Source: Ancylobacter radicis
Lineage (GTDB): Bacteria > Pseudomonadota > Alphaproteobacteria > Rhizobiales > Xanthobacteraceae
DNA: 64,000 nt
Assembly (NCBI RefSeq): GCF_018449475.1
Contig: NZ_JAHCQH010000021.1
Coordinates: 11,772-75,771 of the forward strand
Direction of reading: 5' to 3'
Part shown: piece after piece, positions 38,589 to 51,836 of the stretch
Position numbering within the stretch: position 1 is the first letter of the stretch
Layout of the letters: each line of letters opens with the position of its first letter
The notes under the pieces: generated by a model
What the model saw: the letters and a program-made list of their open reading frames with translations, nothing else
Databases searched by the model: none
Told to the model about the DNA's origin: nothing
Program-made: the position numbers and the translations under genes

Positions 38589-39041
38589 TCAGACGGCGCG
38601 AATATGCCGGATCAATGCCTCGACGGCGGTGGGATAACCCTCCGGGCCGAGGCCGATAATGCAGCCCATCACCGCCGCCGAGAGCGGGGAGTGATGGCGA
38701 AAAGCCTCTCTTTTGAAGACGTTGCTGACATGGACCTGAAGCGCGGGCTTTGAAACGGCGGCGAGCGCGTCGAGGATGGCGATGGAGGAATAGGACAGGC
38801 TGCCGGCATTGATGACGATGCCGTCCGCTGCCAGCCGCGCCTCCTGAATCCAGTCGACCAGCGCGCCCTCATGGTTGGACTGGCGGAAATCCACCGTTCC
38901 GCCAAGGGCTTGCGCGCGAGTGCGGCAGGTCTCGGCAATGTCCTCAAGGGTCAGCGTGCCATAGGGGCCGGTGGGGTCGAGCCCGTACAGATTGGTGTTC
39001 GGGCCGTTCAGGACGAACAGGCGGATGGGAGCTAGGCTCAT
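38589..39041 (-). CDS. Type II 3-dehydroquinate dehydratase-like enzyme
   Basis: A 150-residue dodecameric dehydratase-type protein. It has the N-terminal LFVLNGPNTNLYGLDPTGPYG (with the lid tyrosine), RQSNHEGALVDWIQEA, GIVINAGSLSYSSIAILDAL and the catalytic HVSNVFKREAFRHHS. Usual AroQ proteins read HxSNxxxREExRHxS, so Ala replaces the second acidic residue. The lid loop is altered as well. It is the last gene of a run with GST, GlcG-like, DUF1028, RidA and others, so it may act in a catabolic pathway and not in shikimate synthesis (inference). Confidence 0.85.
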   Translation of the reverse strand: MSLAPIRLFVLNGPNTNLYGLDPTGPYGTLTLEDIAETCRTRAQALGGTVDFRQSNHEGALVDWIQEARLAADGIVINAGSLSYSSIAILDALAAVSKPALQVHVSNVFKREAFRHHSPLSAAVMGCIIGLGPEGYPTAVEALIRHIRAV

Positions 39042-39068
39042 GATATCGCACGCTTTTTCAAGATAGGG

Positions 39069-39698
39069 TCAGGCCACGCGCTCGCGTGGGCGGGTGGCGG
39101 CCATGGCGGGGCGCTCGTCAAAGGCGGCGAACCATTGCGCCGCCGCCGGGCGCCCCTCGCGCCAGCCGAGATCGGCGTAGCGGAAGTCGAGATAGCCGAG
39201 CGCGCAGCCCAGCGTAATGAGGCCGATGTGGTGCACAGTCAGGCCGATCAGGCCGGTCTGTGCCATCTCCTCGATGGCGTCGAGCGCGCCGGTGACCTTG
39301 GCGAGCTGGGCCTGCGTCCAGCCGGGCCAGCGCAGCTCGGCGGGACGCATCACCGTCTCATAGCGATTGGCGATGGCGGCATCGAGCAGGCCGTCGCCGA
39401 GCGCCTGCTGGGTGAGCGCCTGCCAGCGGGCCGGGCCCGGCGCGGGGAACAGGGTGGTGTCGCCGGCGGTGGCGGCGAGGTACTCGCAGATCACCCGGCT
39501 GTCATAGAGCGTGGTGCCGTCCTCCAGCACCAGCGCCGGGATCTTGCCGAGCGGATTGGCCCCGGTTAGCGCCGGGTCGCGCTGGAGCGGGCTGGCCGGG
39601 TTGAACTCGATCTCCAGCGTGCCGGCGAGGCCGGTCTCGATGGCGACCACCATCACCTTGCGCACGAAGGGGGAGGTGGGGGCGTGGATCAGCTTCAT
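39069..39698 (-). CDS. Glutathione S-transferase family protein
   Basis: A 209-residue GST. The thioredoxin-like N-domain begins KLIHAPTSPFVRKVMVVAIE with Ser near the catalytic position, followed by NPLGKIPALVLEDGTTLYDS and RVICEYLA; the helical C-domain runs from about residue 85. Bacterial GSTs of this class serve in conjugation, isomerisation or dehalogenation of aromatics. Its start overlaps the stop of the GlcG-like gene by four bases. In this operon a role on a ring-cleavage product is possible but unproven. Confidence 0.88.
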   Translation of the reverse strand: MKLIHAPTSPFVRKVMVVAIETGLAGTLEIEFNPASPLQRDPALTGANPLGKIPALVLEDGTTLYDSRVICEYLAATAGDTTLFPAPGPARWQALTQQALGDGLLDAAIANRYETVMRPAELRWPGWTQAQLAKVTGALDAIEEMAQTGLIGLTVHHIGLITLGCALGYLDFRYADLGWREGRPAAAQWFAAFDERPAMAATRPRERVA

Positions 39699-40132
39699 GG
39701 GATCTGGTCCTGTGCGCCGATGGCGGCCAGCGCGGCGCGGGCCACCTCGACATCTTCCGCGCCCTTGCCCGAGCCGACGCCGATGCCGCCGACACAGACA
39801 CCCTCGATGATGATCGGCAGGCCGCCTTCCAGATTGGTCAGGCGCTGGCCGGCGGCGAGCGAGAGCTTGATCTCGTCGGCCGGGTTCAGCCGCGAGGTTG
39901 GCTGGCGGTGCGAGGCGGCGGTGATCGCCTTGGACAGCGAGGTCTCGCGCGAGAGCAGCTTGGCGCCGTCCATGCGCACGAAGGCGAGGAGATTGCCGCC
40001 CTCGTCGACAATGTTGATGTTCTGCGGCACGCCCATTTCGCTCGCCTTGGCGACGGCGGCGGCGAGCATGGTCAGCGCGCCCTCATGGGTGAGCTTCAGG
40101 GCCGGGCGGGTGACGGGAGAGCTGCCGGACAT
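39695..40132 (-). CDS. GlcG/HbpS-family protein
   Basis: A 145-residue protein of the GlcG/HbpS (DUF336) fold. Typical motifs are HEGALTMLAAAVAKASEMGV, INIVDEGGNLLAFVRMDGA, SLSKAITAA, and GGLPIIIEGVCVGGIGVGSG. Members bind haem or cobalamin or accompany diol and glycolate catabolism; the biochemical role is unclear. No signal peptide, so cytosolic. Coupled to the GST gene downstream. Confidence 0.87.
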   Translation of the reverse strand: MSGSSPVTRPALKLTHEGALTMLAAAVAKASEMGVPQNINIVDEGGNLLAFVRMDGAKLLSRETSLSKAITAASHRQPTSRLNPADEIKLSLAAGQRLTNLEGGLPIIIEGVCVGGIGVGSGKGAEDVEVARAALAAIGAQDQIP

Positions 40133-40180
40133 GCGGGCCTCGCGGGGGATTGGCAGGAGGGAAGTGCGGGTCGATTCTGC

Positions 40181-40275
40181 GTCCTTCGAGGCGCGCTGGC
40201 GCGCGCGCCTCAGGATGACGTGGCGTCAAGGGTCGTCATGCTGAGGAGCGGGGCGGCGCCCCGCGTCTCGAAGCA
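40181..40275. repeat. Interspersed repeat, second copy
   Basis: GTCCTTCGAGGCGCGC ... GCGCGCCTCAGGATGAC followed by CGTCATGCTGAGGAGCGGGG and CCCCGCGTCTCGAAGCAC. The first half matches the repeat at 30811 and both halves match the one at 48860. It lies between the DUF1028 and GlcG-like genes, inside an apparent operon. Confidence 0.8.
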
Positions 40276-40287
40276 CGCAGGTCCCCC

Positions 40288-40965
40288 TCACTCGTCCCCC
40301 GGCACGCCATAGGCGGGCGCGGTGGAGGGGTCGAGGGCGCGGGTGACATAGGCGTCCATCTGCGGCACCCAGAGCGCCCAGAGCGCGGCGAACTCGGCCA
40401 TCACGTCGCCGTCCGACCAGTCGATGCGCAGATCGGCCACCGGCCAGCCGACGGTGTCGACCAAGAGCATGCCGACCGAATGCACCGGGCCTTCCTCGCC
40501 GCCCGCCGCCACCGCCGCTTGCATGGCGGCGACCAGCCGGTCGCCGAGGCCGGCGTCGGGCATCGCCTCGAAGGCGGCGACCATGGCGGTGGGCACGTCC
40601 TTTGAGGCCAGTAGATTGCCCGCCGCCGCGACGTCCGCGCCAAAGGCGATGGCGTGGGTGCCGAGCGTCTTCGTGCCGGAATGGCCGGCGGCGGGGCCGT
40701 CGCGCCCGAGGATCACCACCTGCCGGTAGTCGAAAAAGTCGGAGGTCGCGCGCAGCTTTTCCAGCACCTCGGCCGCCGGAACACCCTGCGCCAGCAGGTC
40801 GAGCCCGCGCGGGCCGAGCATCGGGTCGGTGATGTTCTGCGTGGCGACCACGCCGACGCCGGCGCGGGCATGGGCGCAGCGCGCCGCCACCGCCGGGGAG
40901 GAGGAGGAGACGGCGATGCCGAACATGCCGGTGCGGGTGCAGCGGGCCGAGATGGAGAAGGTCAC
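40288..40965 (-). CDS. DUF1028 family protein (Ntn-hydrolase-like)
   Basis: A 225-residue DUF1028 protein. It begins TFSISARCTRTGMFGIAVSS and contains GVGVVATQNITDPMLGPRGL and LGTHAIAFGADVAAAGNLLA. Structures of this family show an Ntn-hydrolase fold with an N-terminal nucleophile-like residue, but no activity is firmly assigned. Members often stand beside RidA and M20 peptidase genes, as here (RidA is 13 bases upstream). A hydrolase or amidase step in the pathway is a fair guess. Confidence 0.88.
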   Translation of the reverse strand: MTFSISARCTRTGMFGIAVSSSSPAVAARCAHARAGVGVVATQNITDPMLGPRGLDLLAQGVPAAEVLEKLRATSDFFDYRQVVILGRDGPAAGHSGTKTLGTHAIAFGADVAAAGNLLASKDVPTAMVAAFEAMPDAGLGDRLVAAMQAAVAAGGEEGPVHSVGMLLVDTVGWPVADLRIDWSDGDVMAEFAALWALWVPQMDAYVTRALDPSTAPAYGVPGDE

Positions 40966-40978
40966 GCGCGCTCTCCGG

Positions 40979-41401
40979 TCAGGCGGCGTCGGGAATGACG
41001 GCGGTCACCTCGATCTCGACCAGCCATTCCGGGCGGGCGAGCGCGGGCACGACAAGGCCGGTGGAGCAGGGGAACACGCCGCCCAGCCACTTGCCCATTT
41101 CCAGATACACCGCCTCGCGGTAGCGGATGTCGGTGAGGTAAACGACGATGCGGCAGATATGGCCGAGCTCGCTGCCGGCCTCTTCCAGCAGCATCTTGAT
41201 GTTGGCCATCGCCTTCTCGGCCTGCTTGCCGGCATCGCCGATGTGGACGCTCTCGCGGGTGTCGAGGTCCTGCGCCACCTGGCCGCGCAGGAACACCATG
41301 GTGCCGCGCGCCACCACGCCCTGGCTGAGGTCGTTGTTCAGCTTCTGCTCGGGATAGGTCTGTTTGGTGTTGAACGGGCGGATGCGCGTGTGGGTCGGCA
41401 T
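40979..41401 (-). CDS. RidA/YjgF-family enamine/imine deaminase
   Basis: A 140-residue protein of the RidA family. Family marks are GTMVFLRGQVAQDLDTRESV, the trimer-interface helix GKQAEKAMANIKMLLEEAGS, and ICRIVVYLTDIRYREAVYLE. In archetypal RidA an Arg in the R-x-x-V-Y-L segment binds the substrate carboxylate, and it is present (CRIVVYL). The enzyme speeds hydrolysis of reactive imines or enamines to ketones and ammonia; RutC of the pyrimidine pathway is a relative. Lies between an M20 deacylase gene and DUF1028. Confidence 0.9.
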   Translation of the reverse strand: MPTHTRIRPFNTKQTYPEQKLNNDLSQGVVARGTMVFLRGQVAQDLDTRESVHIGDAGKQAEKAMANIKMLLEEAGSELGHICRIVVYLTDIRYREAVYLEMGKWLGGVFPCSTGLVVPALARPEWLVEIEVTAVIPDAA

Positions 41402-41440
41402 GGACGGTCACTCTTTCTGGTTCAGCGAAATCTGGCTGGT

Positions 41441-42703
41441 TCAGGCGAAAGCGGGTCGGGCGAAGTCCGAAGGGGCAAGAGGCGTGCCGAGCCGGCCGGC
41501 GAGGCGCACCATCAGGGCGCCGGCCTGCGCCAGCTCGTCGAGGCCGATCCATTCATCGGCCTTGTGGGCGCGCCCGATATCGCCCGGCCCGCACACCACG
41601 GTGGGGATTCCGGCCCGCGCATAGAGCCCGGCCTCGGTGCCGAAGGCGAGGGTGACGGGCGCGGCATTGCTTCCCGCCAGCGCCGCGACAAAGCGCACCG
41701 CGCCGCTGTCTTCGGGCGTGTCGAGGCCGGGATAGTCGCTGAGCGTGGCGATTGCGATGCCGGCCTCCGGCGCCTGCGCCAGCAGCCGGGCGCGGGCCTC
41801 GTCGATGATCAGGGCGATGCGGGCATTGAGGCTGTCGAGATCGGTGCCGGGCAAGGTGCGGGCCTCGAATTCCAACGTGGCGTGGTCCGGCACGAGATTG
41901 AGCGCGGTGCCGCCATGCAGCGAACCGACATGCACGCTGGTCCAGGGCGGATCGAAGGCCTCGTTGGTCTCGCCGCGCAGCGAGCGGCCAAGCACGCCGA
42001 GCCCGACGGTGATCTCGGCGCCGGCCTCCACCGCATTGGCGGCGCGGTGCAGCAGGGCGGAATGCCCGCCCCGCCCGGTGATGGTCAGGCGGCGGGCGAA
42101 CTTGCCCTTATGGGCGCGGGCGACCTTGAGCGCGGTCGGCTCGCCGACGATGCAGAGCGCCGGCGGCACCGGCAGGGCGGCGACCTCAGCCACCAGATCG
42201 GGCGCGCCGAGGCAGCCCAGTTCCTCGTCATAGGAGAAGCAGAGGTGAACCGGCGTGTGCGTCGCTGCCTGCTTGAACAGCGGCACATGGGCGAGCACGA
42301 CGGCGAGGAAGCCCTTCATGTCGCTGGTGCCGCGCCCATAAAGCCGGCCCTCGCGTTCGGTCAGCGTCCACGGGTCGCTCGACCAGTCCTGCCCGGCGAC
42401 CGGCACGACATCGGTATGGGCGGAGAGCGCCACGCCCGGCTGCCCCTCCGGGCCGATGGTGGCGAGGAGCGAGGCCTTGCTGCCATCCGCATTGGGGATA
42501 CGGCGGGCGGTGATGCCCTCGCGCGCCAGATAGGCTTCGATGTAGTCGACGATTGCGAGGTTGGAGCGCGCGCTCTCGGTCGGGAAGGCGATGAGATCGG
42601 CCAGAATTGCGCGCGTGCGGGCAAGCGTTGTCGTCTGCGTCGTCGTCTGCGCGGGCTGGTCCGGCTCCGCGGTGAGGATGTCGGCAACGCCCTGAATGGT
42701 CAT
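41441..42703 (-). CDS. M20 metallopeptidase, acetylornithine deacetylase (ArgE)-like
   Basis: A 420-residue M20 enzyme. Zinc-site motifs: LSAHTDVVPVAG, YGRGTSDMKGFLAVVLAHVP and CFSYDEELGCLGAPDL (catalytic Glu in DEE), with GRGGHSALLH in the dimerisation domain. It resembles ArgE, which releases acetate from N-acetylornithine, but no arg genes are near. In this operon it may remove an N-acyl or N-carbamoyl group from a catabolic intermediate. Starts four bases after the flavin reductase stop. Confidence 0.9.
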   Translation of the reverse strand: MTIQGVADILTAEPDQPAQTTTQTTTLARTRAILADLIAFPTESARSNLAIVDYIEAYLAREGITARRIPNADGSKASLLATIGPEGQPGVALSAHTDVVPVAGQDWSSDPWTLTEREGRLYGRGTSDMKGFLAVVLAHVPLFKQAATHTPVHLCFSYDEELGCLGAPDLVAEVAALPVPPALCIVGEPTALKVARAHKGKFARRLTITGRGGHSALLHRAANAVEAGAEITVGLGVLGRSLRGETNEAFDPPWTSVHVGSLHGGTALNLVPDHATLEFEARTLPGTDLDSLNARIALIIDEARARLLAQAPEAGIAIATLSDYPGLDTPEDSGAVRFVAALAGSNAAPVTLAFGTEAGLYARAGIPTVVCGPGDIGRAHKADEWIGLDELAQAGALMVRLAGRLGTPLAPSDFARPAFA

Positions 42704-42707
42704 GCGA

Positions 42708-43199
42708 TTAGGCGACCTTGAGGTGGTGATAGGCGCGGTTGGAATAGACCAGCGGGCGAGTCTCGGCGGTTTCCAGCGCCATCACCTCGCCGGCGATGAT
42801 GTGGTGCGTGCCGAAACCGAACACGCTGGCGATCCGGCAGTCGAAGCGGCAGAGCGCGCCCTTGAGCAGGGGCGCGCCGGTGGTGAGCGCGTCCCAGTCG
42901 GCAATGGCGAAACGGTCCTCGCGATATTCCGCGATCAGCCCGGCGAAGCTGTCGGCCACGCGGTGCTGGTCATGGGCGAGGATGTTGGCGGCGAACACGC
43001 CGTTCTCCAGCAAAGTGGGCAGCACCCGGCTGTCCTTGTGCAGGCAGAACAGCACGGAGGGCGGCTCCATGGACAGCGAGCACAGGCTCGACACCGTGAC
43101 GCCGCCCCGCCCGGCCGCGCCGTCGGTCGTCACCACGGTGACGCCGGAGGCGGTGCGGCCCATGGCGGTGCGGAAATGGCCGGCGTCGATCTGGCTCAT
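42708..43199 (-). CDS. Flavin reductase (HpaC/RutF-like)
   Basis: A 163-residue flavin reductase domain protein. Hallmarks: FRTAMGRTASGVTVVTTDGA, GVTVSSLCSLSMEPPSVLFC and FAANILAHDQHRVADSFAG, then THHIIAGEVMALE. It supplies reduced FAD or FMN to the monooxygenase encoded 20 bases upstream. Two ATGs are possible (43208 and 43199); I favour 43199 because AAAGGA precedes it by eight bases. The reading frame extends far upstream inside the monooxygenase gene, but that part is not coding. Confidence 0.88.
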   Translation of the reverse strand: MSQIDAGHFRTAMGRTASGVTVVTTDGAAGRGGVTVSSLCSLSMEPPSVLFCLHKDSRVLPTLLENGVFAANILAHDQHRVADSFAGLIAEYREDRFAIADWDALTTGAPLLKGALCRFDCRIASVFGFGTHHIIAGEVMALETAETRPLVYSNRAYHHLKVA

Positions 43200-43219
43200 G
43201 ATGCTCATCCTTTGCAGGG

Positions 43220-44680
43220 TTACGCCTTGATCGTCTCGCCCATCACCCGGTCCGACAGGCCGGCCGCCTTGCGCACGAAGTCGAGCGGGCCGTCGAAATC
43301 GAACGAGTTGTAGACCGCGTTCAGATGGTTGAAGTGCGGCGCCTGCGCGAACTGCACGAAGGTCAGCCGGTGGCCAGCATAGTCGGAGTTCAGGAGGTCG
43401 CGGGCGAAGGCGAGCAGCTTGCGCCGGTCCTCCGATTCCCACTGCTTGTTCAGCGAGTAGAACTTCTTCAGCCAGTGGCCCGAGCCCTCGGCCTCGAAGG
43501 CGGCGGAGTTCGGGGTGACGCAGATCTGGCCGCCGCACAGCTCGCGGGCGATGTGCATCATCGCCGGCAGATTGGCGCAGGCATGGACGCGCCCGGCATA
43601 GAGCATCGACTGGTTGGGCATCAGCAGCCCGCCGGGGCTCTTTTCCGCCAGCGTGATCGAGGCGGTGAGATGGGCGTTGATGCCCTCGCGGTAGCAGACG
43701 AGGTCGGCCAGCTTCTCGCGCACCGACTGGAGCTTTTCGAGGCCGGTCTGGCGGGCGTTCCACATCGCCGCGCCGATCATCATGTCGGCGACATAGAGCA
43801 GGCGGTGCACATAGGGGAAGGCCGAGTAGCGGTGCAGCGTGGCGCGGATGTACTGGGCCGCCTTGGTGTGGCGGTAGAAGAACACGTTCTCCCAGGGGAT
43901 CAGCACATTGTCGAAGATGACGAGGGATTCGACCTCGTCGAACTTGTTGGCGAGCGGGTAGTCCTTCGGGTTGGTGCGGCCGGCGAAGGAGGAGCGGCAG
44001 ATCTGCTTCACGCCCGGCGCGCCCATGTCGATGATGCCGCCGACCGCATAGTCGGAAAGCTGCTCGCTGGTCCACGCGCCGACGGTCGGCTTCAGGAAAG
44101 CCTGGTCTGCGTAAGCTGCGGCCGTCTCGTATTTCGCTCCCCGGATCACGATGCCCGCATCGGTCTCCTTCACGACATGCACCATCATGTCGGGGTCCTG
44201 CTCCTGGGGCGGAAGCGAGCGGTCGCCCTTGGGATCGGTATTGGCCGAAATATGGAAAATGTCGTTGTCGAAGATGTTCTGCACGTGCCGGTCGACATTG
44301 TCGGCGAAGCGCGGGTCGAACTCCGCCAGAACGTCGCGGCCGTCGATCAGCGACCAGACCTCGCCGATCGTCTCGTCGCCGACGCGTGTGACGACACCGC
44401 CAATATCCTGCATGACGGCGTCGACGGCGTCGAGCTTGTCGGTCCAGTCCTTGGTCTCGCGCGGCGGCTTGTAGAAGATGGTGTTGCGCTTGTTGTCCTC
44501 AACATAGGTGAGGCGGTCTTGATATTTGGACTCATGCGCCATGTCGTACATGCGGGCACGGACGTCGACGATCGGCTTGAACGCCGGGTGCTGGGTGACG
44601 TCCTTCACCCGTTCGCCGTCCATCCAGATTTCGCGGCCGTCCTGAAGTCCCTGCCGGTAGTCGTCGCCTGTACGGATCAT
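43220..44680 (-). CDS. Two-component flavin-dependent monooxygenase, HpaB family
   Basis: A 486-residue group D flavin monooxygenase. The acyl-CoA-dehydrogenase-like fold is seen in the N-terminal RTGDDYRQGLQDGREIWMDG and YDMAHESKYQDRLTYVEDN, and in the middle VFFYRHTKAAQYIRATLHRY. A GGQICVTPNSAAFE segment is typical of the 4-hydroxyphenylacetate 3-monooxygenase large subunit and its PvcC relatives. It uses reduced flavin from the partner at 42708-43199 and O2 to hydroxylate an aromatic ring. Genes for homoprotocatechuate cleavage (hpaD, E, F) are absent, so the substrate is probably not 4-hydroxyphenylacetate. First gene of the leftward operon, divergent from LysR. Confidence 0.9.
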   Translation of the reverse strand: MIRTGDDYRQGLQDGREIWMDGERVKDVTQHPAFKPIVDVRARMYDMAHESKYQDRLTYVEDNKRNTIFYKPPRETKDWTDKLDAVDAVMQDIGGVVTRVGDETIGEVWSLIDGRDVLAEFDPRFADNVDRHVQNIFDNDIFHISANTDPKGDRSLPPQEQDPDMMVHVVKETDAGIVIRGAKYETAAAYADQAFLKPTVGAWTSEQLSDYAVGGIIDMGAPGVKQICRSSFAGRTNPKDYPLANKFDEVESLVIFDNVLIPWENVFFYRHTKAAQYIRATLHRYSAFPYVHRLLYVADMMIGAAMWNARQTGLEKLQSVREKLADLVCYREGINAHLTASITLAEKSPGGLLMPNQSMLYAGRVHACANLPAMMHIARELCGGQICVTPNSAAFEAEGSGHWLKKFYSLNKQWESEDRRKLLAFARDLLNSDYAGHRLTFVQFAQAPHFNHLNAVYNSFDFDGPLDFVRKAAGLSDRVMGETIKA

Positions 44681-44691
44681 TTAGTGCATCC

Positions 44692-44708
44692 TTTTCCTAT
44701 GAGGAAAT
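44692..44708. promoter_or_regulatory. LysR-type operator between monooxygenase and lysR genes
   Basis: TTTTC, seven bases, GAAAT: the core is TTTCCT-ATG-AGGAAA, a perfect inverted repeat with the T-N11-A form expected for LysR regulators. It lies 12 bases from the monooxygenase start and 62 from the lysR start. Related repeats stand at 45826-45842 and 46573-46589. Confidence 0.6.
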
Positions 44709-44770
44709 ATTGCGCGGGTCCGGTGGATCGGTAAAATATTTTCATTCGTTGTTTGGCATAGAAAAATCCG

Positions 44771-45715
44771 ATGAATGTCTCACTCCGCGCCCTGCGCTAC
44801 GTCGTTGCCACCGCCGACTTCGGCAATCTCACCGAAGCGGCCAAGCACCTGAACGTGTCGCAACCCTCCATCTCCGCGGCGATTGCCCAGTTCGAGGGGG
44901 ATTGCGGCGTCCAGGTCTTTGTCCGCCACCATGCAAAAGGCGTGACGACCACCATCGCCGGCACGCGGATCATCAACGAGGCGCGGCTGCTGCTGAATCA
45001 CGCGCGCGATTTCGGGCAGAATGCCCGCGCCATGGCCGACGAGGTGCGCGGCGAGATCGCAGTGGGCTGCTTCTGGACCATCGCCACCCATTTCATGCCG
45101 AGCCTGCTCTCGCGCTTCGCCGAGACCCATCCGGGCATCACGGTGAGCCTCGACGAGGGCGACCAGCAGCAGATTCTCGAAGCCATCATCTCCGGGCGGA
45201 CCGAGCTGGCGCTGTCCTATGAGTTCGCCCGGCCCGACGAGGTGGTGGCCGAGCAGCTCGCCGAGCTGCCGCCCTATGCGGTGCTGCATCGCGACCACCC
45301 GCTGGCCCGGCGCGAGCGCATCAGCCTCGCCGACCTGCGCGACGAGCCGTTCATCCTGCTCGACCTGCCGCATTCGCGGGATTATTTCATGAGCCTGTTC
45401 CGCTCGGTCGGCATCGAGCCGCAGATCGCCTTCCGCTCCAAGGCCTATGAGCTGACGCGCGGGCTGGTCGGCCATGGGCGCGGCTACACCATCCAGAACG
45501 TGCTGCCGCGCACCCAGACCACCCATGATGGCGGGCGCGTCGCCGCCGTGCCGTTGACCGATGCGCTTGAGCCGGTGCGGGTGGTGAGCCTCAAGCTGCG
45601 CCGGCAGGCGCCGCGCCCGGCGGTGGAGGTGTTCGCCCGCCATCTCAAGGCCTGCTTCTCGCCCGGCGGCCTGTTCGAGCCCGGCACGCTCTCCCCGAAC
45701 AGCACGGTGCGGTGA
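44771..45715 (+). CDS. LysR-family transcriptional regulator
   Basis: A 314-residue LysR regulator. The winged HTH is near the N-terminus: RALRYVVATADFGNLTEAAK and LNVSQPSISAAIAQFEGDCG. The effector domain follows from about residue 90 (GEIAVGCFWTIATHFMPSLL). It is divergent from the monooxygenase operon and upstream of the hutD-like, dehydrogenase and transporter genes, so it probably controls the locus in response to the substrate. Three TTTC-N7-GAAA repeats are candidate sites. Confidence 0.94.
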   Translation: MNVSLRALRYVVATADFGNLTEAAKHLNVSQPSISAAIAQFEGDCGVQVFVRHHAKGVTTTIAGTRIINEARLLLNHARDFGQNARAMADEVRGEIAVGCFWTIATHFMPSLLSRFAETHPGITVSLDEGDQQQILEAIISGRTELALSYEFARPDEVVAEQLAELPPYAVLHRDHPLARRERISLADLRDEPFILLDLPHSRDYFMSLFRSVGIEPQIAFRSKAYELTRGLVGHGRGYTIQNVLPRTQTTHDGGRVAAVPLTDALEPVRVVSLKLRRQAPRPAVEVFARHLKACFSPGGLFEPGTLSPNSTVR

Positions 45716-45825
45716 TCTCCTCGAATAGGGATCGCCTATGCCGTGCATCGGCATTCTGTTGGTTGTGCGGGTAGTTGGCCGTTGCCGCGCCCGCCCGCGC
45801 CTCGCTAGTGTCCGCGCTCCCTGAA

Positions 45826-45842
45826 TTTTCTTGCCCGGAAAA
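45826..45842. promoter_or_regulatory. LysR-type operator upstream of the HutD-like gene
   Basis: TTTTC, seven bases, GAAAA, 39 bases before the HutD-like start. Same half-sites and spacing as the repeat in the monooxygenase/lysR intergenic region. Confidence 0.5.
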
Positions 45843-45880
45843 GGCACGGCGCGGGCCGGCCCGCCGGAGAGTGTGACGCG

Positions 45881-46471
45881 ATGAGCGGATTGAAGGTTCT
45901 CAAGATCTCCGACTACACCACCACGCCGTGGAAGAATGGCGGCGGCATAACCCAGGACGTGCTGCTGCTGCCGGACGGCGCCAGCCAGGAGAACTTCGAC
46001 ATCCGCATCAGCCTCGCCCCGATCGTCAGCGAGGGGCCGTTCTCCTCCTTTCCGGGGGTCGACCGGCACATCACCCTGCTGACGCCGGAGCGGCTGGAAC
46101 TGGTGTTCGCCCATGAGACGCGGGCGCTGAAGCGGCTTGAGCCGCTCTATTTCGACAGCGTGCAGCAGCCCTCCTCGCGCCTGCCGGACGGGGCGGTGCG
46201 GGTGCTCAATGTGATGACGCGGCGCGGGCGCTGGAACGCGCAGGTGATGCCGGCCAAGGGCGACAAGGAGCCCCTGCTGGCGGCGCCCGATGGCGGGCTG
46301 GTGGTGCTGCACGCGGTCACCGGCACATGGCAGGTCGGCCACCCGCTCGGCGCGGCGCTGGTTCATCCCGGAGAAACGCTGATCGCCCGCGAGGAGGGGA
46401 CGTTGCGGGCCAGTTGCGCGCCCAATGGCGAGGCCATCGTCGCGTTTCTCTCGCCGACGGGAAGTCGCTGA
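45881..46471 (+). CDS. HutD/Ves-family protein
   Basis: A 196-residue bicupin-like protein of the HutD family. It begins LKVLKISDYTTTPWKNGGGI, then ENFDIRISLAPIVSEGPFSS and FPGVDRHITLLTPERLELVF; the WKNGGG and SxFPGxxR patterns are diagnostic. HutD often accompanies histidine-utilisation genes and has been proposed to limit pathway flux, but no hut genes are here. ATG 45881 is preceded by GGAGAG. It may be a sensor or regulator of the nearby catabolic pathway. Confidence 0.88.
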   Translation: MSGLKVLKISDYTTTPWKNGGGITQDVLLLPDGASQENFDIRISLAPIVSEGPFSSFPGVDRHITLLTPERLELVFAHETRALKRLEPLYFDSVQQPSSRLPDGAVRVLNVMTRRGRWNAQVMPAKGDKEPLLAAPDGGLVVLHAVTGTWQVGHPLGAALVHPGETLIAREEGTLRASCAPNGEAIVAFLSPTGSR

Positions 46472-46739: not shown

Positions 46740-47675
46740 ATGAGCCGCGACGCTCTGGTCTTCTACAGCGCGGTCGACGATGCCGCGGCCTGGCGCGAGG
46801 CGCTGGCCGCCGAACTGCCCGACCTCGATTTCCGCGTCGACCCGGCGGTCGGCGACCCCGCCGATATCCGCTACGCCCTGTGCTGGAACCCGCCCAAGGG
46901 GTTCTTCTCGCGCTTTCCGAACCTGAAACTGGTCACCAATCTCGGCGCCGGCGTCGATGCGCTGGTGCGCCGCGACGACCTCGCGCCGGTGACGTTCTCG
47001 CGCCTGTCGGACCCCGGCATGGTGCAGATGATGACCTCCTATGTGGTCTTCGCCGTCACCCGCTATGCCCGCGACATCCCGGTCTTCGAGCGCGCCAAGC
47101 GTCGGGGCGAATGGGACTATGTGCATCCGCGCGCGCTGTCCGAGGTCAAGGTGGCGGTGCTCGGTCTCGGCGAACTCGGCGGGCCGGCGGCGCGCACGCT
47201 GGCGGCGATGGGCTTTACCGTGACCGGCTGGTCGCGCTCGCCCAAGGACATTCCCGGCGTCGCCTCGGAGACCGGGCGCGAGGGGCTGGAGCGCGTGCTC
47301 GCCGGCAACGAGATCATCGTCAGCCTGATCCCGCTGACGCCGGAATCGCGCGGCCTGCTCGGCGCGCGCGAATTCGCCCTTATGCAGAAGGGCACGAAGT
47401 TCGTGAACGCCTCGCGCGGGGCGGTGGTCGACGAGGCGGCGATGATCGAGGCGCTGCGTTCGGGCCAGATCGGGGAAGCCACGCTCGATGTGTTCGAGAC
47501 CGAGCCGCTGCCCAAGGGGCACCCGCTCTGGTCGCTGGAGAATGTGCTGATCACGCCGCATATGGCCAGCATCACCGTGCCGAAGCAGGCCGCGCGCGAT
47601 GTGGCGGAGAGCATTCGCCGCGTCCGGCAGGGTCTGCCGCCGCTGCACGAAGTGGATCCCGCCCGCGGCTACTGA
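46740..47675 (+). CDS. D-2-hydroxyacid dehydrogenase (glyoxylate/hydroxypyruvate reductase A-like)
   Basis: A 311-residue NAD(P)-dependent dehydrogenase. The Rossmann motif is VAVLGLGELGGPAARTLAAM; catalytic residues lie in NASRGAVVDEAAMIEAL (Arg), LDVFETEPLP (Glu) and ITPHMASIT (His). The N-terminal part (CWNPPKGFFSRFPNLKLVTN, LGAGVD) is like GhrA. It reduces a 2-keto acid or oxidises a D-2-hydroxy acid. ATG 46740 gives the family start. Upstream of the ABC transporter genes by 57 bases. Confidence 0.92.
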   Translation: MSRDALVFYSAVDDAAAWREALAAELPDLDFRVDPAVGDPADIRYALCWNPPKGFFSRFPNLKLVTNLGAGVDALVRRDDLAPVTFSRLSDPGMVQMMTSYVVFAVTRYARDIPVFERAKRRGEWDYVHPRALSEVKVAVLGLGELGGPAARTLAAMGFTVTGWSRSPKDIPGVASETGREGLERVLAGNEIIVSLIPLTPESRGLLGAREFALMQKGTKFVNASRGAVVDEAAMIEALRSGQIGEATLDVFETEPLPKGHPLWSLENVLITPHMASITVPKQAARDVAESIRRVRQGLPPLHEVDPARGY

Positions 47676-47695
47676 GCCGCCGGCAGGACCAATAT

Positions 47696-47714
47696 GGGCG
47701 GCGCAAGGCCGCCC
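47696..47714 (+). promoter_or_regulatory. Hairpin in the leader of the binding-protein gene
   Basis: GGGCGGC, five bases, GCCGCCC, 18 bases ahead of the binding-protein ATG. Such stem-loops beside binding-protein genes often stabilise that part of an ABC operon mRNA. Confidence 0.45.
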
Positions 47715-47732
47715 CAATCAAAGAGGTGGGAC

Positions 47733-48758
47733 ATGAAGAAGCTGTGCATTGCTTTGGGTGCGCTGGCCGTGATGGCCAGTGCCGGTGCGGCCTCGGCCCA
47801 GGAGAAGCTGGTCGTCAGCACCTGGGGCGGCAACTGGAAGGCCGGCGTCGAGATCATCGGCAAGGAATTCACCAAGCGGACCGGCGTCGAGGTCGAGTAC
47901 ATCACCGGCGGTACGCTGGACCGTCTGGCCAAGGCGAAGGTGGCGCGGGGCAACCCGGAATCCGACCTCGTCAACACCACCGCCCATGTCGGCTATCTCT
48001 ATTATTCCGACGGGCTGATGGAGAAGCTGGACTATTCCAAGATCCCGAACGCGGCGGATCTCTACCCGCTGGCGCGGCGCTCCGACTACACCGTGTCGGA
48101 CTATGTCTATGTCTACACCCCGGCCTTCCGCACCGATTCCATGCCGAAGGACTTCAAGATCGACAGCTGGGAAGTGCTGTGGAGCCCCGAAGTCGCCGGC
48201 AAGCTCGGCCTGCCGGATTTCGACCCCAGCCATATCATCATCGCCGCCACACGCCTCGCCGGCGTGAGCCCGGCCGAGTGGGACAAGGTGAAGCCGAAGC
48301 TGCTGGAGCTGAAGAAGAACATCAAGGCCTTCTACCAGTCGGACGCCACCAGCCAGAACCTGATGCGCACCGGCGAAACCCCGGTTCAGGTGCTGCTCAA
48401 CATCAACGGCTATCACCTCGAAAAGCTCGGCCTGCCGGTGAAGATCGAGGTGCCCAAGGAAGGCGCCGTGGTCGGCACCGATGTGTGGGGCATCAATGCC
48501 GGCTCGAAGAAGAAGGAGCTGGCGCAGCAGTTCATCAATCTGGCGCTGGAGCCGGAGATGCTGGCGCAGCTCTGCAACTTCCACAAATGCTCGCCGATGA
48601 ACCCCAAGGCCAAGCTCGACCCGGCCATCGCCAGCCTGCCCGGCATCTTCACCAGCGCCGAGCAGATCCAGAAGGAAGCGATCCTGGTCGACGACAAGAC
48701 CTATGCCACCCTGCTGCCGCAGTGGAAGGCGTGGTTCACCGAGAACATGATGCACTGA
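47733..48758 (+). CDS. ABC transporter periplasmic binding protein (PotD/family 1-like)
   Basis: A 341-residue solute-binding protein with signal peptide KKLCIALGALAVMASAGAAS cut near AQEKL. The mature start LVVSTWGGNWKAGVEIIGKE is typical of the polyamine/opine/amino acid group, as are TGVEVEYITGGTLDRLAKAK, LGLPDFDPSHIIIAATRLAG and AALEP-like FINLALEPEMLAQLCNF. AGAGGTGGG precedes ATG 47733. It delivers its ligand to the permeases at 49035-50694. The ligand is unknown; the linked enzymes suggest a nitrogen-containing aromatic or an acylated amino compound. Confidence 0.92.
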   Translation: MKKLCIALGALAVMASAGAASAQEKLVVSTWGGNWKAGVEIIGKEFTKRTGVEVEYITGGTLDRLAKAKVARGNPESDLVNTTAHVGYLYYSDGLMEKLDYSKIPNAADLYPLARRSDYTVSDYVYVYTPAFRTDSMPKDFKIDSWEVLWSPEVAGKLGLPDFDPSHIIIAATRLAGVSPAEWDKVKPKLLELKKNIKAFYQSDATSQNLMRTGETPVQVLLNINGYHLEKLGLPVKIEVPKEGAVVGTDVWGINAGSKKKELAQQFINLALEPEMLAQLCNFHKCSPMNPKAKLDPAIASLPGIFTSAEQIQKEAILVDDKTYATLLPQWKAWFTENMMH

Positions 48759-49034
48759 AGGCGGCGACCTTCCCAAGAATGCCGTCATGGTCGGGTCCGG
48801 CCCGGGCATGACGGACCAGGGGCCACCTGCGGGGGCCGTTCTCCGGCGGGCAGCGCCTGCGTCCTTCGAGGCCCGGCTGTGCCGGGCACCTCAGGATGAC
48901 GCGCGCTTGTTGATGATGGAGGCTGAAAAGCCTCTGTCATTATCGCTCATCCCTGCACCTCGTCATGCTGAGGAGCGGGGCATCGCCCCGCGTCTCGAAG
49001 CACCCACGTCAACGCGAACCACCTTTATAGACCC
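48759..49034. repeat. Interspersed repeat region between binding-protein and permease genes
   Basis: Contains GTCCTTCGAGGCCCGGC ... GCCGGGCACCTCAGGATGAC (48860-48900) and CGTCATGCTGAGGAGCGGGG ... CCCCGCGTCTCGAAGCAC (48961-49003), each half a hairpin. The same two halves occur at 40181-40275. No gene. Read-through from the binding-protein gene into the permeases must cross these structures, which may explain unequal expression. Confidence 0.8.
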
Positions 49035-49892
49035 ATGACCCAGCGCCGCCCCTTCTTCATCACCTTCCTCGCGCCCGCCGTGCTGACGGCGGTGATCCTG
49101 GTCGCGGCGATGTTCGAGGTGCTGCAATACAGCGTGCGCGCGTTCATTCCCGGCGCGCTCGACGTGGGCGGCTTCACGCTCGACAATTTCACCCGCATCA
49201 ACCGGCCGATCTACTGGTGGGTGATGCTCGACACCTTCTACATCAGCTTCCTGACGGCGATCTTCTCGCTGCTGCTGAGCTATCCGGTGGCCTTCGCGCT
49301 GGTGCGGGCGCGGCGCGACTGGGTGCGCTCGCTGCTGGTCTCGCTCTCCATCACGCCGCTGTTCACCGGCGAGATCGTGCGCACCTTCTCCTGGATGCTG
49401 ATGCTGGGCTCGGACGGCTTCATCAACTCCATGCTGCGCAAGCTGTCGCTGATCGATATGCCCTTGCAGATCATGTACACGCGCTTCGGCGTGGTGGTGG
49501 CGCTGGTGCAGTTCTCCATGCCGGTGATGATCATCCTGCTCGCTACCGCGATCAGCCATGTCGACCGTGACTGCGAGAAGGCCGCCGCCAATCTCGGCGC
49601 CAGCCCCGGCGCGGTGTTCTGGCATGTGACGCTGCCGCTCACGCTGCCGGGCATTCTCTCCGGCATCGTCGTGGTGTTCGCCTGGACCATGAGCGCCTTC
49701 TCCACCCCGCAGCTGATTGGCGGCGGCAAGGTGCTGATGATCGCCAACCTCGCTTATCTCCAGGGCTTCTCGGTGCTCAACCTGCCCTTCGCCGCGACGC
49801 TCAGCCTGATTGCGCTGGTCAGCGCGCTCGGCAGCCTCGTCCTGATGAAATCCGCCACCAGCCGCATCGAGAAGCGGCTGGCGATCGCCTGA
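49035..49892 (+). CDS. ABC transporter permease 1 (PotB-like)
   Basis: A 285-residue inner-membrane permease of the spermidine/putrescine type with six spans. The first span is FITFLAPAVLTAVILVAAMF; the cytosolic coupling motif is in the EKAAANLGASPGAVFWHVTL stretch (EAA loop), followed by LPLTLPGILSGIVVVFAWTM. Works with permease 2 (11 bases downstream) and the ATPase. Confidence 0.93.
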   Translation: MTQRRPFFITFLAPAVLTAVILVAAMFEVLQYSVRAFIPGALDVGGFTLDNFTRINRPIYWWVMLDTFYISFLTAIFSLLLSYPVAFALVRARRDWVRSLLVSLSITPLFTGEIVRTFSWMLMLGSDGFINSMLRKLSLIDMPLQIMYTRFGVVVALVQFSMPVMIILLATAISHVDRDCEKAAANLGASPGAVFWHVTLPLTLPGILSGIVVVFAWTMSAFSTPQLIGGGKVLMIANLAYLQGFSVLNLPFAATLSLIALVSALGSLVLMKSATSRIEKRLAIA

Positions 49893-49902
49893 GGAGGCCG
49901 AT

Positions 49903-50694
49903 ATGCGATCCTTCGCCTTCTGGAGCCTCGTCACGGCGATCCTCGCCTATATGACGCTGCCGACGCTGGTGGTGCTGATGACCTCGGTCAACCCGACCGA
50001 GATCCTCGCCTTCCCGTCCGAGGGCGTGTCCTTCCAGTGGTACGAGAAGGCGCTGACCTATCCCGACTTCCAGATCGCTTTCCGCAACGGGCTGATCGTC
50101 ACCGGCTTCGCCTCGACGCTGGCGCTGATCGTCGGTTCGGCCTTCGCCTGGCTGGTGCAACGCTACAGTTTCCGGGGCCGGGGGCTGCTGGAGGCGGTGC
50201 TGTGGTCGCCGCTGATCATCCCGCATTTCACGCTCGGCTTCGGCTTCCTGCTGCTCGGCGGTGCCTTCGGGCTGCAGCAGGGCTATGTGATGATCGTGCT
50301 GGCGCACATGGTGCTGGTGATGCCCTTCGTCACCCGCGCGGTCTATGTCAGCCTCGCCAATATCGACCCGAACCTCGCCCGCGCCGCCGCCAATCTCGGC
50401 GCCTCGCCGTTCCAGGTGCTGATGCGCATCGAGCTGCCGCTGGTGCTGCCGGGCATGGCGGGCGGCTGGCTGATCGCGGCGGTGCTCTCGCTCACCGAAT
50501 TCACCGCCTCCCTCTATGTGACGGGCAGCCGGACCCAGACGCTGCCGGTCGCCATGTATAATTACATCCGCGAATATGCCGACCCGACCGTGTCGGCGGT
50601 CTCGGCCATGCTGATCATCGTCACCACGCTCATCATGTTCATCGCCGACCGGGCCTTCGGCCTGCGCCGGGTGCTGGCGATCGACACCCACTGA
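49903..50694 (+). CDS. ABC transporter permease 2 (PotC-like)
   Basis: A 263-residue permease with six spans. TLPTLVVLMTSVNPTEILAF and FPSEGVSFQWYEKALTYPDF resemble the N-terminus of PotC, and the EAA loop is ARAAANLGASPFQVLMRIEL. GAGGAGG precedes ATG 49903. Second membrane subunit of the importer. Confidence 0.93.
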   Translation: MRSFAFWSLVTAILAYMTLPTLVVLMTSVNPTEILAFPSEGVSFQWYEKALTYPDFQIAFRNGLIVTGFASTLALIVGSAFAWLVQRYSFRGRGLLEAVLWSPLIIPHFTLGFGFLLLGGAFGLQQGYVMIVLAHMVLVMPFVTRAVYVSLANIDPNLARAAANLGASPFQVLMRIELPLVLPGMAGGWLIAAVLSLTEFTASLYVTGSRTQTLPVAMYNYIREYADPTVSAVSAMLIIVTTLIMFIADRAFGLRRVLAIDTH

Positions 50695-50723
50695 TCCCGT
50701 TCGACGTGCCGGAGACCTGCCTC

Positions 50724-51836
50724 ATGACGCCCCACACCCGCCCCGACAGCCCCGCCGGAGATGCCGTCGAGATCGTCCGTGTCCGCAAGGAGTTCGGCGC
50801 GGCGGTCGGCGTCGCCGATGTGTCGCTGACGGTCGGGCGCGGCGAGTTCATCACCCTGCTCGGGCCGTCCGGCTGCGGCAAGTCCACCCTGCTGGGCATG
50901 ATCGCCGGCTTCGTCACCCCGACCGCCGGCAAGATCATCGTCGACGGCGTCGATCTCACCGAGGTCGAGCCCTATCGCCGCGACATCGGCATGGTGTTCC
51001 AGAGCTACGCGCTCTTTCCGCACATGAATGTGTTCGACAACGTCGCCTTCGGCCTGAAGATGCGCAGGCTGCCCAAGGCGCAGATCGAGGCCGAGGTGCG
51101 CCGGGCGATCGAGATGATGAAGCTTACCGGCATGGAATCGCGGCGCGTGCGCCAGCTTTCCGGCGGCCAGCAGCAGCGCGTGGCGCTGGCCCGCGCCATC
51201 GTCATCCGCCCGAAGGTGCTGCTGCTCGACGAGCCGCTCTCCGCGCTCGACAAGAATCTGCGCGCGCAGATGCAGGTCGAACTGTCCGACCTGCATCGCA
51301 AGACCGGGCTGACCACCATTTTCGTCACCCATGACCAGGGCGAGGCGCTCAGCCTGTCGGATCGGATCGTGGTGATGAATCGCGGCGAGGTGCAGCAGGT
51401 GGCGACGCCGATCGAGCTGTACCGCACGCCGGCCAATGGCTTCGTCGCCTCTTTCATCGGCGAGATCAACGCGCTGCCGAAAGCGCGCTACGAGCGGGCC
51501 GGGGAGATGGCGGCGCTGGTGCTGCCGGGCGTCGGGCGGCTGACCGCGCCGGCGCGGGCGCAGTGGAGCTTCAATGACGGCGCCGAGGTGCAGGCCTTCC
51601 TGCGCCCCGAGCAGGTGCGCCCGGCCTTGCCCGGCGAGGCCGGAGCGAACCTCCTTACCGGCACGGTGGCGGCGCATATCTACCAGGGCTCGCACACCAT
51701 CACGCGGGTGGAGGTGCCGGGCATCGGTCTGGTCGAGACGCGGGTGACGGGCGCGGAGATCATCAGCGCGCACCCGGTCGGCACGCCGATCACGCTCAGC
51801 CTCGATATTGGCGAGGCGGTGCTGATCGCCGCCTGA
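50724..51836 (+). CDS. ABC transporter ATP-binding protein (PotA-like)
   Basis: A 370-residue ATPase: Walker A LLGPSGCGKSTLLGMIAG, Q-loop MVFQSYALFPHM, signature LSGGQQQRVALARAI, Walker B VLLLDEPLSALDKN and H-loop FVTHDQGEALSLS. The C-terminal 120 residues form a TOBE domain (VQAFLRPEQVRPALPGE). I start at ATG 50724 (GGAGA eight bases upstream) and not at the GTG at 50706. Last gene of the transporter operon. Confidence 0.94.
   Translation: MTPHTRPDSPAGDAVEIVRVRKEFGAAVGVADVSLTVGRGEFITLLGPSGCGKSTLLGMIAGFVTPTAGKIIVDGVDLTEVEPYRRDIGMVFQSYALFPHMNVFDNVAFGLKMRRLPKAQIEAEVRRAIEMMKLTGMESRRVRQLSGGQQQRVALARAIVIRPKVLLLDEPLSALDKNLRAQMQVELSDLHRKTGLTTIFVTHDQGEALSLSDRIVVMNRGEVQQVATPIELYRTPANGFVASFIGEINALPKARYERAGEMAALVLPGVGRLTAPARAQWSFNDGAEVQAFLRPEQVRPALPGEAGANLLTGTVAAHIYQGSHTITRVEVPGIGLVETRVTGAEIISAHPVGTPITLSLDIGEAVLIAA

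What the first reader, a model, noticed from the sequence alone, without database searches (positions are those of the whole stretch)
38589..51836. Candidate undescribed catabolic pathway: group D flavin monooxygenase with RidA, M20 deacylase, DUF1028, GlcG, GST, type II dehydratase and a dedicated PotDBCA-like importer
Seen: one leftward run (monooxygenase, flavin reductase, M20, RidA, DUF1028, GlcG-like, GST, dehydroquinase-like) with gaps of 4-40 bases except one repeat-filled gap, divergent from LysR and a HutD-like/D-hydroxyacid dehydrogenase/ABC importer set. Known: the Rut pyrimidine pathway uses a flavin monooxygenase, flavin reductase, RidA (RutC) and a hydrolase. Inference: a parallel pathway opening a nitrogen-bearing ring or an N-acyl aromatic, ending in a 2-keto or 2-hydroxy acid. 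The hpaDEFGHI genes for 4-hydroxyphenylacetate are absent, so the standard annotation of the monooxygenase would mislead.
Basis: partly seen in the sequence, partly recalled or inferred. Interest (0 to 1): 0.8.

Follow-up and report, generated by a model that had tools for sequence, protein, structure and literature searches.

The report
Imidazole-acid breakdown operon with swapped hydroxylase
The genes look like a variant of a known bacterial pathway for digesting histamine-type (imidazole) compounds, in which the usual first enzyme seems to be replaced by an unrelated one that databases probably mislabel as a 4-hydroxyphenylacetate enzyme.

Summary
The set is conserved: of 103 HpaB-type oxygenase copies with at least 6 kb of sequence on both sides (101 loci), 90 have the RidA type and 86 the DUF1028 type within 9 kb. 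RidA, DUF1028 and M20 match the histamine/imidazole-4-acetate operon hinFLHG of Pseudomonas in family and order. There the hinF slot holds an unrelated single-component flavoprotein (full four-gene order in 16 of 20 loci examined). Here an HpaB-type oxygenase with its own flavin reductase takes that slot. Best evidence is a natural swap: Pseudomonas sp. UMAB-08 keeps six neighbouring genes at 70-90% identity to a canonical-order locus, but has the HpaB-type hydroxylase. So the core pathway is known; the alternative hydroxylase, and its branch with a changed dehydroquinase-like enzyme, a hydroxyacid dehydrogenase and a PotDBCA-like importer, look new. The exact substrate is open: this genome showed no aspartate ammonia-lyase, the cluster no aminotransferase or aldehyde dehydrogenase, and some genomes carry both hydroxylases. 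That HinF is the other flavoprotein rests on gene order; the HinF sequence was not seen.

The parts
38589..39041 (-). Type II dehydroquinase-like protein with the lid arginine replaced by Asp22
   Evidence: under the equivalog cut-off TIGR01088 (153 of 170 bits) but over three NCBIfam subfamily cut-offs for type II dehydroquinase (NF003805, NF003806, NF003807); alignment to the S. coelicolor enzyme; D22 in 39 of 43 cluster copies, Y27, N78, H104 and R111 in 43 of 43; a better-scoring AroQ lies elsewhere in the genome
39069..39698 (-). Glutathione S-transferase-like protein, role unknown
39695..40132 (-). GlcG/HbpS-like small protein, role unknown
   Evidence: PF03928
40288..40965 (-). DUF1028 protein, HinH-like; predicted N-terminal-threonine amide hydrolase that opens the hydroxylated ring
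   Evidence: PF06267; T2 in 114 of 116 rows and 20 of 20 chosen rows; model pLDDT 90.8; Taspase1, HslV and proteasome fold, alignments to proteasome beta subunits beginning at model residue 2 and chain residue 1; 50-60% identical to the copies of five canonical-order loci
40979..41401 (-). RidA-family protein, HinL-like, with Ser113 at the place of the usual arginine
   Evidence: PF01042; alignment to solved RidA proteins; Ser in 117 of 134 rows and Arg in none; 59-63% identical to five canonical copies
41441..42703 (-). M20 amidohydrolase (ArgE-like), HinG-like; predicted N-formyl/N-acyl amino acid deacylase
   Evidence: over the acetylornithine deacetylase cut-off TIGR01892 (390 of 298 bits); H96, D98, E160, E161, E188 and H380 in 62 of 62
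42708..43199 (-). Short-chain flavin reductase, supplies reduced flavin
   Evidence: PF01613
43220..44680 (-). HpaB-type (group D) oxygenase component, predicted ring hydroxylase in the place of HinF
   Evidence: PF11794/PF03241; E103 and S145 stand where HpaB has Tyr104 and His142, invariant in 131 of 131 relatives compared
44681..44770 (.). Divergent intergenic region, probable control region of both operons
   Evidence: coordinates, read; no site tested
44771..45715 (+). LysR regulator; nearest solved relative is a P. aeruginosa regulator (3fzv/6m5f, HinK by recall)
   Evidence: 222 bits against 94 for the next protein
45881..46471 (+). HutD-family protein, role unknown
   Evidence: PF05962
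46740..47675 (+). GhrA-like D-2-hydroxyacid dehydrogenase (HADH), substrate unknown
   Evidence: within 9 kb of the oxygenase in 39 of 47 rows of this branch
47733..48758 (+). Periplasmic binding protein of PotD type
49035..49892 (+). ABC permease, PotB-like
49903..50694 (+). ABC permease, PotC-like
50724..51836 (+). ABC ATPase, PotA-like
   Evidence: TIGR01187 367 of 356 bits

Best explanation
This is a catabolic operon for an imidazole carboxylic acid (imidazole-4-acetate or a close analogue). The predicted steps are: (1) the PotDBCA-like importer takes up the acid; (2) the HpaB-type oxygenase, fed reduced flavin by the reductase, hydroxylates the electron-rich imidazole ring to an imidazolone; (3) the DUF1028 protein, using its N-terminal threonine, opens the imidazolone amide; (4) the RidA-type protein removes ammonia from the resulting formimino/imine group; (5) the M20 enzyme removes the N-formyl group and frees the amino acid (aspartate if the substrate is imidazole-4-acetate). 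The LysR protein senses a pathway acid, as HinK does. Steps 3-5 rest on kinship and gene order shared with hinLHG; which of HinH and HinL does which part is inference. Step 2 rests on position and the natural swap in Pseudomonas. Step 1 and the roles of the DHQ2-like protein, HADH, GST, GlcG and HutD are inference or unknown. No activity was shown here.
For: HinF, HinL, HinH and HinG are listed as FAD-monooxygenase EC 1.14.13.5, enamine deaminase, amidase, and amidase (PMC6467879 Table 3, passage), and hinFLHG (PA5393-PA5390) converts imidazole-4-acetate to aspartate (PMC8231116, passages, section 20). In 20 loci from Pseudomonadota the order flavoprotein-RidA-DUF1028 was seen in 20 and flavoprotein-RidA-DUF1028-M20 in 16. 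Window RidA, DUF1028 and M20 are 59-63, 50-60 and 45-47% identical to those of five of these loci. Natural swap: L110 (Pseudomonas sp. UMAB-08) against L203 (same family, f196, as other Pseudomonas-like genomes): RidA 90, DUF1028 79, M20 70, LysR 85, aldehyde dehydrogenase 81, aminotransferase 79%, with the hydroxylase different; the L110 genome gave no match to the other flavoprotein, while another query did find its gene there. Aspartate ammonia-lyase lies by the cluster of L116, which carries the window-type accessory set, and near L121, L122 and L155. The window LysR is nearest, among solved structures, to the P. aeruginosa regulator 3fzv/6m5f. DUF1028 folds as an Ntn hydrolase. HpaB residues Tyr104 and His142 are replaced in 131 of 131.
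Against: In two searches of 387 genomes of the class with the same settings, 31 carry the HpaB type and 19 the other; 7 carry both, where independence predicts about 1.5, so the two are not simple alternatives everywhere. Loci L118, L121, L153, L154 and L158 hold both within about 9 kb, with one RidA and one DUF1028 found. The window genome's two relatives of aspartate ammonia-lyase are fumarases, and the window holds no relative of the L110 aminotransferase or aldehyde dehydrogenase in the 30 kb scanned. The window oxygenase falls in a separate 57-row clade (SH-aLRT 100, stem 0.33) tied to DHQ2-HADH, so its substrate may differ from that of L110. M20 is near only 21 of 47 copies of the window branch and 19 of 56 of the rest, and NCBI's own model would call it acetylornithine deacetylase. 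An imidazole acid does not explain DHQ2, HADH, GST or GlcG.
Confidence: 0.65

Rival explanations
1. A narrower form of the best explanation, not exclusive with it: the window branch acts on a different imidazole or imidazole-like acid than imidazole-4-acetate, for example imidazole lactate or propionate, with HADH and the DHQ2-like enzyme shaping the side chain.
For: Separate clade that holds 40 of the 43 rows with DHQ2+HADH nearby; Bradyrhizobium L046, L047 and L051 carry both oxygenase branches side by side; the window genome's aspartate ammonia-lyase relatives are fumarases.
Against: L116 combines the window-type accessory set with the other oxygenase branch and aspartate ammonia-lyase, which suggests one shared substrate.
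Confidence: 0.4
2. A pyrrole-2-carboxylate-type pathway: the oxygenase makes 5-hydroxypyrrole-2-carboxylate, DUF1028 opens the lactam, RidA removes ammonia, giving 2-oxoglutarate.
For: Pyrrole 2-carboxylate monooxygenase (EC 1.14.13.130) is listed as a group D enzyme in the review PMC6165268, Table 1, its reference being a Rhodococcus enzyme; Rhodococcus holds the reductase-oxygenase-RidA-DUF1028 set (L104, L108). The core trio would suffice chemically (inference).
Against: No step for M20, found near 21 of 47 and 19 of 56 oxygenase copies. RidA lacks the arginine that binds carboxylates in RidA proteins (PMC4433059 passages). The module shared with hinLHG points to imidazole. The sequence of the characterised enzyme was not available.
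Confidence: 0.14
3. A homarine (N-methylpicolinate) pathway, at least for the marine loci with OYE, aldehyde dehydrogenase and both flavoproteins.
For: A conserved homarine pathway was reported in 2026 (citation seen); ring opening, deformylation and reduction would fit OYE, ALDH and M20 (inference).
Against: The paper is not held, so its gene families were not compared; in the window no relative of the OYE, ALDH or second flavoprotein was found in the 30 kb scanned.
Confidence: 0.06
4. An ordinary 4-hydroxyphenylacetate or phenol hydroxylase with unrelated neighbours.
For: Automatic names in the databases.
Against: 221 of 480 bits for HpaB-1; Tyr104 and His142 replaced in 131 of 131; RidA and DUF1028 recur beside it.
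Confidence: 0.03

Closest known systems
Histamine/imidazole-4-acetate operon hinFLHG (Pseudomonas putida U, P. aeruginosa PA5393-PA5390)
   Same: RidA-type HinL, amidase HinH (DUF1028 in the loci of the same order), M20-type HinG, same neighbourhood, LysR nearest to a P. aeruginosa regulator (HinK by recall)
   Different: Hydroxylase of another family plus a flavin reductase; importer and DHQ2/HADH/GST/GlcG/HutD added; no clustered hinC, hinD or hinI relative
Group D two-component monooxygenases (HpaB, TftD, HadA, pyrrole-2-carboxylate monooxygenase)
   Same: Protein family and separate flavin reductase
   Different: Glu and Ser at two HpaB active-site places, fixed in 131 of 131; 26% identity to the other HpaB-family protein of the genome
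Rut pyrimidine pathway
   Same: Flavin monooxygenase, flavin reductase, Rid protein, hydrolase
   Different: RutA is a luciferase-like enzyme (recalled); RutC and RutF cut-offs not met; DUF1028 and M20 in place of other hydrolases
Type II dehydroquinase AroQ
   Same: Family, three subfamily cut-offs, catalytic Tyr, Asn, His and one Arg
   Different: Lid Arg replaced by Asp in 39 of 43; another AroQ present elsewhere

Membership tests
hinFLHG imidazole-acetate operon | HinL-type RidA directly beside DUF1028 (HinH) | tested here: met
   window 40288-41401; 59-63% and 50-60% identity to copies in five canonical-order loci; not compared with HinL/HinH themselves
hinFLHG imidazole-acetate operon | HinG-type M20 amidohydrolase in the operon | tested here: met
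   window 41441-42703, 45-47% identity to five such copies, six named residues kept
hinFLHG imidazole-acetate operon | HinF ortholog (single-component flavoprotein of the hinF slot) | tested here: not met
   own genome has none at E<=1e-120; best 44% with a stop codon inside; HpaB-type oxygenase instead. That this flavoprotein is HinF is inference
hinFLHG imidazole-acetate operon | HinK-type LysR regulator | tested here: inconclusive
   nearest solved relative is 3fzv/6m5f at 222 bits, but only 38-40% to the LysR of L203 and L204
hinFLHG imidazole-acetate operon | Aspartate ammonia-lyase (HinI) in the genome | tested here: not met
   two relatives at E<=1e-30, both over the fumC_II cut-off and under the aspA one
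hinFLHG imidazole-acetate operon | Growth on or turnover of imidazole-4-acetate | not testable with these tools
   experiment needed
4-hydroxyphenylacetate 3-monooxygenase HpaB | Curated score of TIGR02309/TIGR02310 | tested here: not met
   221 of 480 and 166 of 885 bits
4-hydroxyphenylacetate 3-monooxygenase HpaB | Active-site residues Arg100, Tyr104, His142 (role recalled) | tested here: not met
   Arg kept, Glu and Ser at the other two
Rut pathway | RutC and RutF curated scores | tested here: not met
   28 of 169 and 140 of 255 bits
Type II dehydroquinase | Curated scores | tested here: inconclusive
   three subfamily cut-offs passed, the equivalog TIGR01088 not
Type II dehydroquinase | Lid arginine (role recalled) | tested here: not met
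   Asp22
Ntn hydrolase (DUF1028 protein) | Fold and N-terminal nucleophile | tested here: met
Pyrrole-2-carboxylate monooxygenase | Sequence kinship to the Rhodococcus enzyme | not testable with these tools
   sequence not found

The most novel reading that the evidence does not exclude
There are two unrelated flavin hydroxylases for imidazole ring acids: the single-component HinF type and a two-component HpaB-type enzyme hidden under the label 4-hydroxyphenylacetate hydroxylase. The window branch couples the second to a changed dehydroquinase, a hydroxyacid dehydrogenase and a dedicated importer, forming a new pathway for a further imidazole compound such as imidazole lactate.
Probability: 0.4. 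Interest if true: 0.62.

Novelty: new variant of a known kind. Interest (0 to 1): 0.5.

Why it matters
A large group of database proteins is named for a phenol reaction that it probably does not do (5,362 of 7,999 scored candidates match at E<=1e-60, a capped list; how many belong to this family was not determined). The gene swap gives a testable function, points to DUF1028 as an N-terminal-threonine ring-opening hydrolase, and would extend imidazole/histamine-type catabolism by this enzyme to Alphaproteobacteria, Rhodococcus and a Bacillus plasmid. It also leaves a clean open question: what a dehydroquinase relative that has lost its lid arginine does beside an imidazole pathway.

Tried and rejected
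Rejected: Rut-like pyrimidine pathway (scores far under cut-off); 4-hydroxyphenylacetate; aminobenzoate-type routes (no ring-cleavage dioxygenase was among the recurring neighbours; Rieske-type genes lie near only 2 of 47 and 9 of 56 oxygenase copies). Held at first, then demoted: pyrrole-2-carboxylate. Could not be compared: homarine genes (paper not held).

Led nowhere: literature on DUF1028 (0 papers); the AlphaFold model of the oxygenase (pLDDT 45.3; not used); searching for the Rhodococcus pyrrole enzyme by name among homologues. Mutual exclusion of the two hydroxylases was expected and not found (7 genomes with both).

Rows dropped before counts: 137 oxygenase rows became 131 (one short, five copies of genomes fetched twice). 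In one search those copies were still in. In one search only rows with 6 kb on both sides were counted (47 of 57 in the window clade, 56 of 74 outside; 103 rows from 101 loci). The 80 loci are the best of 591; the 30 loci are the top-ranked of the 68 matching genomes, and the 20 were picked from these 30. The 70 of 137 include loci cut off at contig ends and copies. One search printed one M20 column at a wrong place (129); it is not used. Its top-five list hid one RidA row, so the column was recounted.

Papers: PMC6467879, PMC8231116 (and its section 20), PMC4433059, PMC6449761, PMC13390433, PMC2881104 and PMC8935207 were seen as passages only; of PMC6165268 the outline, section 5 part 1, section 24 and one passage; de la Torre 2018, Becker 1997 and the 2026 homarine paper were not read.


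Full report
OBSERVATION. The gene list of the finding is correct. The nearest named relatives of the oxygenase are in Ancylobacter (96% identity in A. oerskovii), so the window is from that genus or very near it. In 30 genomes of its genus (own included), 22 carry a close copy (87-100%), 3 only a 63-65% copy and 5 none at E<=1e-60. In 387 genomes of its class, 31 (own included) have a relative at E<=1e-150.

CONSERVATION. A scan of genome contigs gave 591 places, of which the best 80 loci were kept. Among the 103 copies (101 loci) with at least 6 kb on both sides, the neighbours within 9 kb were: window clade, 47 copies: LysR 43, PotA 42, DHQ2 40, RidA 39, DUF1028 39, HADH 39, flavin reductase 35, GlcG 25, M20 21, GST 19, HutD 12. 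Other clades, 56 copies: RidA 51, DUF1028 47, LysR 46, flavin reductase 21, M20 19, HADH 3, DHQ2 2. Of the 103, 83 have both RidA and DUF1028. RidA and then DUF1028 on the same strand within 6 kb downstream was seen for 70 of 137 oxygenase genes, cut-off contigs and copies included. So oxygenase + RidA + DUF1028 is the core; the DHQ2-HADH-PotDBCA set is the mark of the window clade (57 rows, SH-aLRT 100, stem 0.33, with 40 of the 43 DHQ2+HADH rows).

THE KEY LINK. Literature passages on histamine catabolism list HinF as FAD-monooxygenase EC 1.14.13.5, HinL as enamine deaminase, HinH as amidase, HinG as amidase EC 3.5.1.8 and HinI as aspartate ammonia-lyase (PMC6467879 Table 3), and say that HinFLHG converts imidazole-4-acetate to aspartic acid under the LysR regulator HinK, with PA5393 to PA5390 in P. 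aeruginosa (PMC8231116, passages, section 20). The original paper (de la Torre 2018) was not read.

WHICH ENZYME IS HINF. A flavoprotein of TIGR04046-like, FMO-type kind was seen beside RidA and DUF1028 in Pseudohalocynthiibacter. In 396 genomes of the phylum, 68 had a match at E<=1e-60. Of the 30 top-ranked loci, 29 had RidA and DUF1028 next to it. Of 20 longer stretches picked from these, 20 had flavoprotein-RidA-DUF1028 and 16 the full flavoprotein-RidA-DUF1028-M20 order on one strand. Seven of the 20 lie in one family (f196), and all seven show the full order; five of the seven were also in a marker search and match the marker gene of Pseudomonas sp. UMAB-08 at 85-91%, which makes f196 the Pseudomonas family. 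This is the hinFLHG order. Reported HinF coverage of 92-94% against Brevibacterium fits this flavoprotein, whose ends do not align in more distant relatives, better than the HpaB type, which aligns over 97% between Pseudomonas and Rhodococcus at 76% identity. The two families show no significant similarity. The HinF sequence itself was not available, so this assignment is inference.

THE NATURAL SWAP. Locus L110 (Pseudomonas sp. UMAB-08) has oxygenase-RidA-DUF1028-M20, then LysR on the other strand, an aldehyde dehydrogenase and a class III aminotransferase. The hydroxylase differs. The L110 genome gave no match to the FMO-like protein, while another query found its aspartate ammonia-lyase there (689 bits over the 681 cut-off). 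Its LysR matches the P. aeruginosa structures 3fzv and 6m5f at 585 bits. That these are HinK is recalled; passages of PMC2881104 only say that 3fzv is a putative LysR factor of P. aeruginosa. On a Bacillus badius plasmid the HpaB-type set (reductase, oxygenase, FAD synthetase, RidA, DUF1028) lies with an amino acid permease, an aminotransferase and an aldehyde dehydrogenase, though without M20 in the stretch shown.

MECHANISM. The window oxygenase keeps Arg99 but has Glu103 and Ser145 where HpaB has Tyr104 and His142 (that these are phenol-site residues is recalled). Both are fixed in 131 of 131. DUF1028 was modelled with pLDDT 90.8. Its best matches after the DUF1028 structure 2imh are Taspase1, HslV and proteasome subunits, with alignments to proteasome subunits that begin at model residue 2 and chain residue 1. 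Thr2 stands in 114 of 116 rows. So DUF1028 is probably an N-terminal-threonine amide hydrolase. The RidA-type protein has Ser at the place of the arginine said to be essential for hydrolysing imines (PMC4433059 passages; alignment). Of 134 rows, 117 have Ser there and none has Arg; the same paper says that about 10% of RidA proteins have Ser. Its substrate is therefore perhaps not a plain 2-imino acid. Six M20 residues are intact in 62 of 62.

UNEXPLAINED ADDITIONS. The dehydroquinase-like protein lost the lid arginine (Asp in 39 of 43) but passes three subfamily cut-offs for the family; the genome has another, better-scoring AroQ (196 bits). In many loci it lies next to HADH; in Ancylobacter the two lie at the two ends of the cluster. 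A role on the side chain of the acid is possible but unproven. The Aminobacter plasmid L116 has the window-type importer, HADH, HutD, GlcG, GST and DHQ2 together with aspartate ammonia-lyase and an oxygenase of the other branch, which argues that the accessory set also serves an aspartate-forming pathway.

RESULTS AGAINST. Seven of 387 genomes have both hydroxylases (expected about 1.5 if independent; five of the seven are one genus). Five clusters hold both (L118, L121, L153, L154, L158). M20 is missing within 9 kb of more than half of the oxygenase copies. The window genome's aspartate ammonia-lyase relatives are fumarases. The exact substrate is therefore not settled.

VERDICT. A known kind of pathway core with a non-homologous hydroxylase in the first slot and an unexplained accessory set. 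Searches for prior mention in the held library: DUF1028, pyrrole-2-carboxylate monooxygenase, Rid clustering, homarine, histamine hin genes, imidazoleacetate monooxygenase and PA5393. In the listings and passages that I saw, no paper describes the HpaB-type hydroxylase in this setting; most of the listed papers were not opened, and subscription papers were not searched.

Noticed in passing
window 40133-40287 and 48857-48868: The gap between DUF1028 and GlcG holds an imperfect inverted repeat (19-nt arms); a 12-base piece of one arm recurs exactly at 48857, just after the binding-protein gene. Three places with at most one mismatch against 0.68 expected; 3 of 100 shuffles do as well. Perhaps an intergenic repeat element.
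   Followed up: partly
window 33730, 35086-37551 and 37558-38475: A LigD-like and a Ku-like gene lie directly downstream of the DHQ2-like gene, and a second Ku-like match starts near 33730; names are by my own reading, not scanned against a library.
   Followed up: no
L046, L047, L051: Bradyrhizobium loci carry two HpaB-type oxygenases (64-65% and 78-80% to the window) in one cluster, one with RidA-DUF1028, the other with DHQ2-HADH-PotDBCA.
   Followed up: partly
L086 9182-14483: Tandem oxygenase-RidA-DUF1028-oxygenase-RidA arrangement, the second pair at 59% and 36% identity to the window.
   Followed up: no
L116, L117, L119, L120, L122, L155: A FAD synthetase-like gene travels with the HpaB-type cluster in these loci, which hints at FAD as the flavin.
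   Followed up: partly
L115 14552-15226: The DUF1028 gene is annotated as fimbrial assembly protein FimA in Rhizobium sp. ACO-34A, a misleading name.
   Followed up: no
L082: A metagenome bin labelled Bordetella parapertussis carries a window-clade cluster; the label is doubtful.
   Followed up: no
L101 5494-6459, L131: An arginase-family gene sits beside the oxygenase in these loci, perhaps an alternative formimino hydrolase.
   Followed up: no
G000:C7:704714-705523: A second HpaB-family protein in the window genome, 26% identical to the window's, context not studied.
   Followed up: no
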